From Myxococcus dinghuensis (GTDB lineage: Bacteria > Myxococcota > Myxococcia > Myxococcales > Myxococcaceae): a stretch of 64,000 bases of DNA. Shown in pieces: positions 2,528 through 5,836 of the stretch. Position numbers and translations under genes: made by a program. The DNA lies in the NCBI RefSeq assembly GCF_024198235.1, contig NZ_JAKCFB010000009.1, positions 124,001-188,000 on the forward strand, written 5' to 3'. The notes beneath the pieces are model-generated. The model searched no databases. It was not told the origin of the DNA and saw only the letters and a program-made list of their open reading frames with translations. Every line of letters begins with the position of its first letter. The first letter of the stretch is position 1.

Positions 2528-2742
2528 TCAGGAGTTCTCGGGCGTGAGGGGCGGGGTGGGGTGCATGACCGCCACGCGGCGAGGGTCCCTGGGGTCGATG
2601 ACCACATCCAGGGTGGACCCCACGTCTGCCTTGCCCGCGAGGATGAGGGCGGGGAGCAGGGCGCGGGTCTTCGCCTCGTAGGTGTCGTGTCCATGTCGCC
2701 AGACCCGGACGGGCAAGGACGTGACCTGGAGGTTGTTCACCC
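2528..2742 (-). pseudogene. 3' half of split DUF3592-like membrane protein gene
   Basis: The frame reads VNNLQVTSLPVRVW and continues to a stop at 2528, ending with the DVVIDPRDPRRVAV signature common at the end of short DUF3592-like proteins. It has no start of its own beyond the GTG of the VNN codons at 2732-2740. Its 5' half lies about 2.9 kb away at 5636-5836. Joining the two at the shared GGTTGTTCACCC sequence restores one uninterrupted 134-residue frame. The gene has therefore been split by the element described at 2731-5646, and this half is probably not translated into a working protein. Confidence 0.8.
2731..2742. repeat. Left core repeat (attL core)
   Basis: GGTTGTTCACCC, identical to the copy at 5635-5646. 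The flanking bases differ on both sides, so the identity is exactly the core. It encodes the VNN codons on the minus strand, which is why the host reading frame is conserved on excision. Confidence 0.75.
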
Positions 2743-2811
2743 CCCGCTGCTTCTACTGATAAACCAGCAAGTTCAGTTGCTTACTTCACTAGCGGGTGTC
2801 TTCGCCCCTGT

Positions 2812-2833
2812 CGTGTGCCCTCAGTGTGCCCCT
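2812..2833. repeat. Left arm-type direct repeat
   Basis: Twenty-two bases that match 5485-5506 at 21 of 22 positions in the same orientation. Each copy holds GTGTGCCC twice, spaced 11 bp (one helical turn). It overlaps the stop codon of the recombinase remnant. Paired repeats flanking a core, with one overlapping the end of int, resemble arm-type integrase sites; that function is inferred. Confidence 0.55.
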
Positions 2834-3102
2834 TCGGTGACGGACCCCGAAGCGGACGGAGGGAAGGGGTTGGGCCTGTCGAGCTGCTGAACCGCGTTCG
2901 CGCGCGTTTCCGGCGACAGATGGGCGTATCGCTCGGTCATGGCGATGGTCGCGTGTCCCATGAGTTCCTGGATGACCTTCAGAGGGATCCCGCGCATGGC
3001 GAGATGGCTGCCGTAGGTATGGCGTAGATCGTGCCATCCGATGAGCCCTTGCTCGCGACTGATGCCTACCCTCGACCTCGACTTCCTAATGATTCTGATC
3101 AT
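2821..3102 (-). pseudogene. Tyrosine recombinase/integrase, C-terminal fragment
   Basis: Residues after the first ~15 match the end of the phage-type integrase catalytic domain. Box II HDLRHTYGSHL supplies His and Arg, LMGHAT the second His region, and ERYAHL the nucleophilic Tyr. The N-terminal DNA-binding region and the box I Arg are absent, and an in-frame TAG sits directly before the first ATG at 3102. It therefore cannot encode an active recombinase. Its position 80 bp inside the left core is where int normally sits in integrative elements. It stops within the left arm repeat. Confidence 0.82.
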
Positions 3103-3251
3103 CTATGGTGCGGGTGCCCTGCCTGCCAGGGGGAGACCGTCTCGGTTGGTTTCACCGAGGAGCTTCCCTCTTTCCCGCTCGTCCCTGTTCGCCGACTACA
3201 CACTTATAGGGACACAACCACGACTGCGGGGGCCCTGAGGTGAGGACCACA

Positions 3252-3285
3252 ATGACGGGCACCTATGAATCCAGGTGCCCGTCAT
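3252..3285 (-). terminator. Hairpin terminator after exported-protein gene
   Basis: Perfect 13-bp arms ATGACGGGCACCT (3252-3264) and AGGTGCCCGTCAT (3273-3285) enclose an 8-nt loop. It lies about 55 bp past the stop of the minus-strand gene at 3341, so it probably ends that transcript. No clear T-run follows. Confidence 0.6.
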
Positions 3286-3340
3286 CGTGTACAGGACGGG
3301 TGACAATGCATGGCTGGCAATGGCGCGCTGGTGGTGGCAG

Positions 3341-4273
3341 CTAGGGACTCTTCGCGGGCGGCGCTCTCTTCGTGAGTTCTCGCTTGAGTTGATGGCAGCG
3401 CGGTTCGTACTGAGGTTCGCTGATGGTTGCCCTGTTGCCGTTCATCTGGTTCCGCTGAACAGCTTCATCAATCAGCACGCCCTCGGCCCGCGCTGCCTTG
3501 CAATAGGCCTCCATCGAGGCCACCGTATTCCCCGCCTGTTCATAGAGTGCTGCCCGCTCGGCCCAGCAGAGCATCGCGAGTGTTTCAGGCGTCCGCGCAA
3601 GAAACGAATCCAGGACATCAATGGCTTCTCGTGCTGCTCCGGTCGCACGGAGGTACTCGCGTGTCGCGAGCACCTTCTCGCATTCCAGGTTGGCATCCAG
3701 TTCGGAAGGTTGAGCGTTGACTTGGAGTTCCTCGCCCACAAATGCCGTGCCCTTCCAGCTCCCTTCCTGGGTGTCGGAGCGTGAGTCAAAATGCGCGCGG
3801 AAGATGTAGGAGCCTGGAACGAGGGCAAGGGCCGCCGTCTCCTGCTCTGTCAACCCGAAGTGGCCTATGAGGATGCGAGCAGCACCAGGCTGCAGGGAGA
3901 CCTGCCGCGGGGAGCCTCCTAGGTAGCGAAGACGCAGGGGGGTCACCACCCGGCGCTTGAGGGTCTCGTTGAAGCGAGCGAGCTCGAACCGGACCAGTGG
4001 ACTCAGGTTGTCTGTGCGGGAGGTGACGACGAGGCTCCTTGCGACTCCTGGCTTCGCTTCATCCTCCGCACTGGGAAGGAGGCGCAGGTAGACCGTGACG
4101 ACCATCGGCCAACCCGGAAACAGGCGTCCGGGTGTCGTCGAGAAAGAAAGCTTGGCTCGAACCTCCTCCGGAGTCTGGGGAAGCGGAGTGGGCGTGAAGC
4201 GCGGCTGGGCCTGGGCCAGCGAGGCCAGGGCGAGGACCGCAAGAATCAGCGCGAGGGGAAATGTCTTCGTCAT
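3341..4273 (-). CDS. Exported protein with helical repeat tail
   Basis: A 310-residue protein starting at ATG 4273 with AGGA 8 nt upstream. Residues 1-22 form a classical signal peptide ending ASLAQAQ. The middle (about 45-190) looks like a beta-rich domain. Residues about 205-290 contain helix pairs (AREAIDVLDSFLARTP, ALYEQAGNTVASMEAYCKAA) of TPR type, with scattered cysteines. It is probably periplasmic or outer-membrane associated. It is the only intact sizeable gene in the integrated element, so it may be cargo. No specific family is recognised. Confidence 0.75.
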   Translation of the reverse strand: MTKTFPLALILAVLALASLAQAQPRFTPTPLPQTPEEVRAKLSFSTTPGRLFPGWPMVVTVYLRLLPSAEDEAKPGVARSLVVTSRTDNLSPLVRFELARFNETLKRRVVTPLRLRYLGGSPRQVSLQPGAARILIGHFGLTEQETAALALVPGSYIFRAHFDSRSDTQEGSWKGTAFVGEELQVNAQPSELDANLECEKVLATREYLRATGAAREAIDVLDSFLARTPETLAMLCWAERAALYEQAGNTVASMEAYCKAARAEGVLIDEAVQRNQMNGNRATISEPQYEPRCHQLKRELTKRAPPAKSP

Positions 4274-4363
4274 GGCGAGTTCCTGATGGGATGTGGGGAG
4301 CGGTCATTCACGCAAAGGCGATGATTGCAGTTTCCTCGTGTCGGCGCGGCGTTTCCATGCCGG

Positions 4364-4850
4364 TCAGGCCCAGCAGCCGACGCGCGTGCGGCCCTCCGGC
4401 AACGTCACCACGTTGTAGCCCGTGTACCCGTCCACCACGAGCGCACCCGTGGTGCCGCCCAGCACGTCCTTGGGCGTCTTTCCCGCGCGGCCCAGGCTGA
4501 AGCGGTAGCCGATGAGCCACGCGCCCTCGCGTGTCTGGGTGAGAAACGTCCAGAGGTAACCCCGGCGCGTCTTCTTCACGTCCAGCACCCGCAGCGGTGT
4601 CTCGTCCGCCAGCACGACTTCGGCGGACGCGATGCATTGCAGCAGGTGCGTCGACAGAGGCAGCAGCACCGAGGCCGAGTGGTGGAAGAGGTCCGTCAGC
4701 GTGCTGCGACTCATGGGGACGCCGCCTCGCTCCAACCGCTGCGCCAGCCGGTGCAAGGGCATGGCGTCCGCGCACTTGGAGACGACAACGTGCGCGAGCA
4801 GGCCCGGGCCGTACTCGCCCTTGTCCACCACCTTGGGTGGAATCGGATGA
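4364..4850 (-). pseudogene. IS66-type transposase fragment
   Basis: The frame from about 4850 down to 4364 reads IPPKVVDKGEYGPGLLAHV and later ADETPLRVLD and VVDGYTGYN. These are the middle of an IS66 family TnpC transposase, including the first two catalytic Asp residues. It stops at RVGCWA, just before the region with the third acidic residue, and its N-terminus (zinc finger and leucine-rich region) is missing. Both ends are broken and no IS66 inverted repeats are seen, so this is a dead remnant nested in the integrated element. Confidence 0.8.
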
Positions 4851-4852
4851 TC

Positions 4853-4984
4853 ATGGACGCCCTACTCCAGGCTGAGACGAAAGCCGGCCGGATGTTGACG
4901 CGGGATGGGATCTTGAGGGAGGTCGCGAGGCATATGCGGGACTATCGAATCCCTATGAACTTCACTTTTGGGAGGGGACGATGA
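4853..4984 (+). CDS. Short ORF coupled to downstream gene
   Basis: Forty-three residues, MDALLQAETKAGRMLTRDG and on, ending at a TGA that overlaps the ATG of the next frame at 4981. The coupling suggests it was the tail of a real gene whose 5' part was lost at the IS66 breakpoint near 4850. No domain is recognised. It may still be translated, but a truncated remnant is more likely. Confidence 0.4.
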   Translation: MDALLQAETKAGRMLTRDGILREVARHMRDYRIPMNFTFGRGR

Positions 4985-5440
4985 GTGGTGGAGAGACATG
5001 GCGGGGCGACATCAAGGCACGCCTGTCCGAGCGGGTTCGTGAACGCGGCTTCGCCTCACTCCTCGCCTTTGCCGAAGCACGCCCTGCCGTTCCGCTCTAC
5101 GTCCTTGCCGACGAACTGGGCTTCGACGTTGCGGCTGTGCAGATTCTAAGCGGCTTGATGAACGAGGCGGAGCAGCGCAAGCAGGTAACGCGCTTGGTAC
5201 GTGACGTCCTCGTGCGCGAGTTGGCCGAGAGGTTTTCGAATGGCTGGCCGGACGTGCGGGACGATGCAGCCCGTGGAGAGGTTGCGATGGGGCTTGGGTC
5301 GTGGTTCGCCTATACCCCACCGGGAGCGGGTTGACCGGGCAGGGAATGAGCTTCTCTCCAACCCCCCGCCGACCGGCTGGCGCCCTCTCGGACCTGACGA
5401 CGAGCTTCTCCGGATGCTCCTGCCGGACGAGGAAGCCTGA
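4981..5440 (+). pseudogene. Hypothetical protein gene with a single-base frameshift
   Basis: ATG 4981 follows a GGGAGGGGAC box and opens a 117-residue frame ending at 5334. The natural C-terminus (HRERVDRAGNELL to LLRMLLPDEEA, stop at 5440) continues in the +1 frame. Removing one C from the CCCC run at 5315-5318 joins the halves into one 152-residue protein (YTP-HRERV). The protein is helical and charged with no signal peptide. Either the gene is inactivated, the run is a sequencing error, or slippage allows both products. The family is not identified. Confidence 0.6.
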
Positions 5441-5484
5441 CCACCCCTGAAGCAGGTGAGTTGGTGAGTTAGGGACCATGCCGC

Positions 5485-5506
5485 CGTGTGCCCCCAGTGT
5501 GCCCCT
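5485..5506. repeat. Right arm-type direct repeat
   Basis: Same orientation as 2812-2833 and identical at 21 of 22 bases, again two GTGTGCCC units 11 bp apart. It sits 128 bp inside the right core. Unlike the left copy it is not next to recombinase coding sequence, which argues for a site function rather than a leftover of a second int gene. Confidence 0.55.
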
Positions 5507-5575
5507 CCAGCGAGGTTTGAGGTGGCACCTGGGGAAACAACGTGGGACGGGGCGGGATGAACAACCTGAGGAAAT

Positions 5576-5836
5576 TCAAGGCGATAGCGGGTAACAGCGC
5601 GTCCTGCTTAGGGTTTTCCATCGCCCTGCCTGCGGGTTGTTCACCCGCAGCCCCGTGACCTGGCGCTCCAGGAGCTCGGCCTCCGCCCTCTCTCCCGAGG
5701 CGAGGAGGCGGGGGACCTCGACGAGGAACCACCGGGAGTCGAGGGGGCTGCGGATGAAGAACAGGACGCCGAACGCCACGGCGACGACGGCGATTCCCGA
5801 CAGCAGCACCCACCCGGTGGACGTCCCTTGATCCAT
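5576..5836 (-). pseudogene. 5' half of split DUF3592-like membrane protein gene
   Basis: ATG 5836 opens a protein with one membrane helix at residues about 8-28 (VLLSGIAVVAVAFGVLFFI). A cytoplasmic part follows with the family-like string SGERAEAELLERQVTGLRVNN. After residue 67 the frame enters the inserted element and adds an unrelated tail to a stop at 5576. The missing remainder is the frame ending at 2528. A truncated membrane-anchored product could still be made. The gene lies just downstream of the serine-hydrolase gene in the same direction. Confidence 0.78.
5635..5646. repeat. Right core repeat (attR core)
   Basis: GGTTGTTCACCC, a perfect copy of 2731-2742. An inverted core-like sequence GGGATGAACAACC lies 69 bp inside, at 5554-5566, with one extra base. 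Confidence 0.75.

What the first reader, a model, noticed from the sequence alone, without database searches (positions are those of the whole stretch)
2528..5836. An integrated element splits a membrane-protein gene exactly in frame
Two perfect 12-bp copies of GGTTGTTCACCC flank 2,904 bp. The minus-strand codons before the right copy (QVTGLRVNN) join directly to those after the left copy (LQVTSLPVRVW), giving one 134-residue DUF3592-like protein. Insertion inside a coding core that is restored on excision is like the skin element of sporulating bacteria. It raises the possibility of excision in some cells of a developing bacterium, although the element's own recombinase is truncated.
Basis: partly seen in the sequence, partly recalled or inferred. 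Interest (0 to 1): 0.72.

Follow-up and report, generated by a model that had tools for sequence, protein, structure and literature searches.

The report
Decayed toxin-immunity element splits a gene
A worn-down piece of mobile DNA, which still carries a gene likely to protect against a rival's toxin, has landed in the middle of a small membrane-protein gene of a social soil bacterium; it belongs to a widespread family of such elements and looks stuck rather than switched.

Summary
The 2,904-bp insert (2731-5646) is a decayed member of a genus-wide family of tyrosine-integrase elements. Its right end (5487-5638) is a conserved block with matches in 26 of 27 genomes of the genus, own included. 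In 6 of 6 elements with both ends in the fetched stretch, core repeats sit at the predicted places. Most relatives use tRNA or tmRNA T-arm sites; the seven integrase places nearest to this one do not. Relatives carry a DUF2380, SitA6-like toxin and, overlapping its stop codon, a homologue of the insert's 117-aa protein. Here only the toxin's end and the intact 117-aa gene remain: by inference an orphan immunity gene. The integrase is a C-terminal fragment and transposase remnants are present, so self-excision is very unlikely. The joined 134-aa gene is credible: a same-genome homologue aligns without a gap across the junction, and G011 has an unsplit, distant homologue at the syntenic place. 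A better test case surfaced: in G013 a 40.75-kb relative with a full-length integrase splits a LysR gene, unsplit in 14 of the other 26 genomes.

The parts
2528..2742 (-). C-terminal half of the split host gene (VNNLQVTSLPVRVW... to stop)
2731..2742 (.). core repeat at the integrase side (attL); likely 7-bp exchange region TGAACAA inside it on the minus strand (inferred)
2812..2840 (.). arm-type repeat next to the integrase stop, 86% identical to 5485-5513
   Evidence: part of it recurs beside the integrase in four relatives' loci
2821..3102 (-). C-terminal fragment of a tyrosine integrase (PF00589 profile positions 113-170 of 172)
3135..3219 (.). stretch 92% identical to DNA on own contig C112 next to a transposase ORF (PF00665 rve); probable insertion-sequence remnant where the integrase was cut
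3341..4273 (-). 310-aa protein without a Pfam match; homologues in 10 other same-genus genomes
4364..4831 (-). IS66 transposase fragment (PF03050 positions 2-154 of 284)
4838..4984 (+). 3' remnant of a DUF2380, SitA6-like toxin gene, 67% identical over 46 aa (4838-4975) to the toxin of L099
4981..5334 (+). intact 117-aa gene overlapping the toxin stop; probable orphan immunity gene
5485..5513 (.). arm-type repeat at the right end
5487..5638 (-). conserved right-end block of the element family
5635..5646 (.). core repeat at the right end (attR)
5635..5836 (-). N-terminal half of the split host gene (MDQG...QVTGLRVNN)

Best explanation
An integrative element of a genus-wide family entered the middle of a small host membrane-protein gene by tyrosine-integrase recombination between a core in the element and a like sequence in the gene (12 bp identical; 7-bp exchange region TGAACAA between short arms, inferred from the tRNA T-arm cores of relatives, GCGGG-7 bp-CCCGC). 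Shown: conserved right end, like repeats at both ends, core repeats at the predicted places, integrase C-terminus at the expected end. After insertion it decayed: the integrase was cut beside an insertion-sequence-like stretch and the toxin gene beside an IS66 fragment. What is left whole is, besides a 310-aa gene of unknown role, the 117-aa gene that in relatives overlaps the stop of a DUF2380, SitA6-like toxin gene. Inferred: it is an immunity gene, kept because it protects the cell from toxin of kin that carry an intact relative. The host gene is split and, without its own integrase, the insertion is effectively fixed.
For: Right-end block matched in 26 of 27 genomes of the genus, many matches starting at the core. 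Core repeats of 12-36 bp at both predicted places in 6 of 6 two-ended elements. Arm-like repeat at both ends. Full-length integrases of 418 aa in relatives; the seven best matches to the fragment in other genomes are 71-77% identical. Toxin remnant, and the toxin stop overlapped by a 117-aa-type gene in 7 of 7 loci where the toxin was found. Gap-free junction in homologues. Syntenic unsplit homologue in G011 between the PF00144 protein (77%) and a small lipoprotein (74%).
Against: No empty site of this exact gene was found: 0 stretches in genome contigs, and no relative of the joined protein confirmed there; records very near the window may be left out. The G011 gene at the syntenic place is only 38% identical while its neighbours are 74-79%, and it is 81% identical to the C37 homologue, so orthology with the split gene is unsure. 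The toxin of L099 matches NCBIfam SitA6 far below its cut-off (24.8 against 85.75 bits), though Pfam DUF2380 passes. The 117-aa protein has no Pfam or NCBIfam match; immunity is by position only. Own C61 carries the block without a clean core pair: its flanks share 925 bp.
Confidence: 0.88

Rival explanations
1. A skin-like element: excised in some cells during development, by a recombinase acting in trans, to restore the membrane-protein gene.
For: Core repeats, arm-like repeats and both gene halves are still open. Other integrases of the wider family exist in the genome: C70 (409-aa frame) and C112 (343-aa frame).
Against: Own integrase is a C-terminal fragment. C70, C112 and C35 integrases lie beside tRNA genes, and the whole own genome holds only two copies of the right-end block, this one and C61, so their arm sites probably differ. 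No link of the gene to development was seen. A gene this short can stay open by chance.
Confidence: 0.04
2. Chance: a coincidental 12-bp repeat and unrelated ORF pieces.
For: 12-bp repeats 1-5 kb apart are common here (179).
Against: Gap-free alignment of the joined protein, conserved block, arm-like repeats and six concordant two-ended elements.
Confidence: 0.01
3. The insertion is real, but the split gene was already a failing, fast-changing duplicate, so the insertion was neutral and the junction says nothing about function. (Compatible with the best explanation; it concerns the host gene.)
For: Only 38% identity to the syntenic G011 gene while neighbours are 74-79%; no SHOCT tail; a homologue remains at C37.
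Against: Both halves still align and hold no stop; no direct test.
Confidence: 0.35

Closest known systems
sitAI-bearing mobile elements of myxobacteria (PMC5562445, PMC8546572, PMC10047993: passages read)
   Same: Toxin gene followed by a small gene on mobile DNA; SitA6 is one of six described families; the passages say sitAI loci often lie on prophage-like or other mobile elements.
   Different: The toxin here is SitA6-like only by a weak NCBIfam score plus DUF2380, and the window copy has lost it. The passages do not describe the attachment anatomy; the word integrase has 0 occurrences in the main texts of these three papers.
tRNA/tmRNA-targeting integrative islands (Islander, PMC4383910: abstract start seen)
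   Same: Tyrosine integrase, core direct repeats, T-arm sites in most relatives (31 of 43 integrase loci).
   Different: The window copy lies mid-gene in a protein gene, and its seven nearest integrase places have no T-arm site.
skin, SP-beta/spsM and gin elements of endospore formers (PMC5025042, PMC4191935, PMC5595907: abstract starts)
   Same: Element splits a coding gene; frame restored on joining the flanks.
   Different: No complete recombinase, no directionality factor recognised, no developmental link seen.
Phages Mx8 and Mx9 of Myxococcus xanthus (PMC6070905: passages)
   Same: Site-specific integration in a myxobacterial chromosome.
   Different: In Mx8 attP lies inside int; here the core lies 79 bp beyond the integrase stop.

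Membership tests
tyrosine-integrase integrative element | core direct repeats at both ends | tested here: met
tyrosine-integrase integrative element | integrase gene at one end | tested here: met
   C-terminal fragment only
tyrosine-integrase integrative element | complete catalytic integrase (mobility) | tested here: not met
   93 of about 418 residues; PF00589 113-170 of 172. Hence filed as a decayed relic of such an element, not as a mobile one
tyrosine-integrase integrative element | arm-type sites at both ends | tested here: inconclusive
   29-nt repeat at 2812 and 5485, recurring beside integrases of relatives; binding not tested
SitAI cassette | toxin lipoprotein gene | tested here: not met
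   only the last ~46 codons remain in the window; whole in relatives. So the window is not filed as a SitAI cassette but as the remnant of a SitA6-like one
SitAI cassette | small immunity gene directly after the toxin | tested here: inconclusive
   position met; protection not testable here
SitAI cassette | TraAB-dependent delivery | not testable with these tools
   none
skin-like developmental element | element splits a gene that is restored in frame | tested here: met
skin-like developmental element | functional element-encoded recombinase | tested here: not met
skin-like developmental element | excision in developing cells | not testable with these tools
   needs reads or PCR

The most novel reading that the evidence does not exclude
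A branch of a kin-killing element family in this genus has moved from tRNA sites into host protein genes, and full-length members such as the 40.75-kb element in the G013 LysR gene act as reversible switches: the regulator is off while the element is in and is restored when it leaves, possibly in a cell-type-dependent way.
Probability: 0.08. Interest if true: 0.78.

Novelty: new member of a known kind. Interest (0 to 1): 0.4.

Why it matters
It places one puzzling insert in a definable family: conserved right end, core rule and cargo. That gives element ends for SitA6-like toxin-immunity elements in this genus, shows integrases that left tRNA sites for protein genes, and names a testable gene-splitting case (G013) with a full-length integrase. 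The window copy shows how such an element can decay to an apparent orphan immunity gene.

Tried and rejected
Chance repeat: rejected (against 9, 16, 27). Own-genome element on C61 as a second gene-splitting case: rejected, because its flanks share a 925-bp direct repeat that holds an intact gene copy on the left. Joined protein and a degenerate empty-site pattern in genome contigs: nothing confirmed. A close phage source: 713 phage records match the integrase fragment, all under 60% identity; 13 IMG/VR loci match a full-length relative's integrase, most at 65-71%, but were not examined further. G008 as a syntenic empty site: its homologue of the 1437-2423 gene lies without the other neighbours. 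PMC7490427 (ISME J 2020) is not held.

Limits of the counts. The integrase tree does not resolve the window's place; 22 of 43 rows fill under half of the columns and long branches meet. The upstream parts of the L022 and L023 rows do not look like integrase by eye, and L042, counted as non-tRNA, has a near-T-arm sequence by eye. Of 79 right-end matches listed, some short pieces, 27 were not classified; four rows (L068, L072, L136, L137) align only from deep in the block. The 43 integrase loci are a part of the places: weaker ones and other genera were left out. L096 was cut short of its integrase and L099 showed none, so neither counted as two-ended.
Full report
Setting. The window lies in G000, contig C114, 124001-188000, of a 10.4-Mb genome in 124 contigs.

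Observation. Both 12-bp copies are exact and 2,904 bp apart. The minus-strand halves join to 134 aa. A same-genome homologue (C37:53117) and one in G011 align through the junction without a gap, at 41% and 38%. Matches were found in 13 of 61 genomes, all of one genus, own included. In G011 the order is LVIVD-repeat protein (79%), PF00144 serine hydrolase (77%), the unsplit 171-aa homologue, small lipoprotein (74%); the window has the same order with at least two further ORFs between host gene and lipoprotein. Caveat: that homologue is 81% identical to the C37 copy and only 38% to the split gene, so true orthology is unsure.

Chance. Exact direct repeats of at least 12 nt, 1-5 kb apart, number 179 in this window; between stretches of the size of the two expected attachment places a 12-nt match occurs in 4 of 1,987 random placements. 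The repeat needs the anatomy to count.

Anatomy. The right end, 5487-5638, is a conserved block with 79 matches, some of them short pieces, in 26 of 27 genomes of the genus; many begin at the same base at the core and end at the same base. A 29-nt repeat, 86% identical, marks both ends of the insert, and part of it recurs beside the integrase in L094, L095, L097 and L098 (not reported in L093). In 6 of 6 two-ended elements (window; G014; G009 twice; G021; G022) the two ends share a core at the predicted place, 12, 19, 36, 20, 33 and 30 bp long; the spans from block to integrase match are 2.8, 13.0, 13.1, 14.9, 4.2 and 10.5 kb. The core fits short arms around 7 bp: tRNA type GCGGG-AATCGAA-CCCGC, window right end GCGGG-TGAACAA-CCCGC, while at the other window end both arms differ from this (read; the 7-bp exchange region is inferred).

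Targets. Of 43 same-genus integrase loci, own included, 31 have a T-arm motif within 330 bp downstream, 23 a tRNA or tmRNA gene called by ARAGORN within 700 bp, 12 neither. Of 52 right ends examined (of 79 matches), 34 have the strict T-arm motif; of the other 18, by eye, 4 are near variants, 4 unreliable and 10 not tRNA-like, the window's among them. The seven best matches to the fragment outside the own genome (in G009, G013, G014, G025 twice, G023, G021) are all from loci without a T-arm. On a tree of 43 integrases the target label needs 3 changes against 10.7 on shuffling, 0 of 500 shuffles as low; the window row falls in an unresolved cluster that holds 11 of the 12 non-tRNA rows and also 12 tRNA rows. 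Joined flanks put the core 5-12 residues from the end of a frame in G014, G009 and G021, with APP1 and SIMPL genes identified in G014 and G021, but mid-gene in the window and in G013. In G025 two integrase contigs share 22-bp and 18-bp cores with right ends on other contigs.

G013. A 40.75-kb stretch (cores at 247871 and 288622) with one right-end block and an integrase aligned over 417 of 418 residues splits a LysR gene. The joined 294-aa protein has full-length matches at 73-91%, without stops, in 14 of the other 26 genomes at E up to 1e-60; the other 12 had no match at that limit. The element shows no SitA6-like toxin or 117-aa gene and a kinase match of 38%. It is a stronger case of a gene split by a possibly active element than the window.

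Cargo. Seven other element loci and own C61 were compared with the L099 cassette (L099 is one of the seven). The toxin is found in L093, L094, L095, L096, L097, L099 and C61, not in L098; the kinase in all but L097; the 464-aa protein of unknown function in all but L098, in two pieces in L097. The toxin frames are open. In these 7 of 7 loci a homologue of the 117-aa protein starts in the toxin's stop. That homologue is found in 26 of 27 genomes of the genus, often in tandem. In the window 4838-4975 matches the toxin's last residues at 67% over 46 aa, and the 117-aa gene follows with its ATG overlapping the stop. PMC8546572 (passages) says sitAI genes lie together in an operon, often on mobile DNA, and that the tested SitA6 alleles hold AHH nucleases. 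Our match to the SitA6 model is weak, so the name is a likeness.

Decay. The integrase keeps 93 residues; beside it 3135-3219 matches own C112 at 92% next to a transposase ORF. An IS66 fragment abuts the toxin remnant. The 310-aa gene has homologues in 10 other same-genus genomes, whose contexts I did not examine.

Mechanism. Insertion by integrase, then decay, is well supported. Excision by another integrase is possible in principle, but C70, C112 and C35 sit by tRNA genes, and the own genome holds only two right-end blocks, the window's and C61's. Retention of the immunity gene by selection is inference.

Literature. Seven searches of the open library: none of the listings or of the passages read in six papers showed this attachment anatomy. 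Subscription papers are mostly missing, and the ISME J 2020 paper on toxin-immunity loci on mobile elements (PMC7490427), seen only as a reference, is not held.

Noticed in passing
G013:C113:247871-288622 (L171, L172, L192-L194): A 40.75-kb element with full-length integrase splits a conserved LysR regulator gene at a 12-bp core; unsplit in 14 of the other 26 genomes.
   Followed up: partly
own genome C61:63244-71194 (L102, L173): Another family element with open toxin, kinase and 464-aa-type frames and an integrase remnant is flanked by a 925-bp direct repeat of chromosomal DNA; origin unclear, possibly duplication or assembly.
   Followed up: partly
window 5555-5566: A near-copy of the core (1 mismatch) in inverted orientation lies inside the conserved right-end block; many relatives have a T-arm-like inverted sequence at the same place, by eye.
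   Followed up: no
genus-wide, e.g. G002:C1:6064042-6065244: Homologues of the 117-aa protein occur in tandem runs, as expected for stacked immunity genes.
   Followed up: no
G009, G021, G023, G007, G015 (L018, L023, L022, L132, L149): What looks by eye like the same SIMPL-gene 3' end serves as integration site in five genomes; the gene was identified by Pfam in G021 only.
   Followed up: partly
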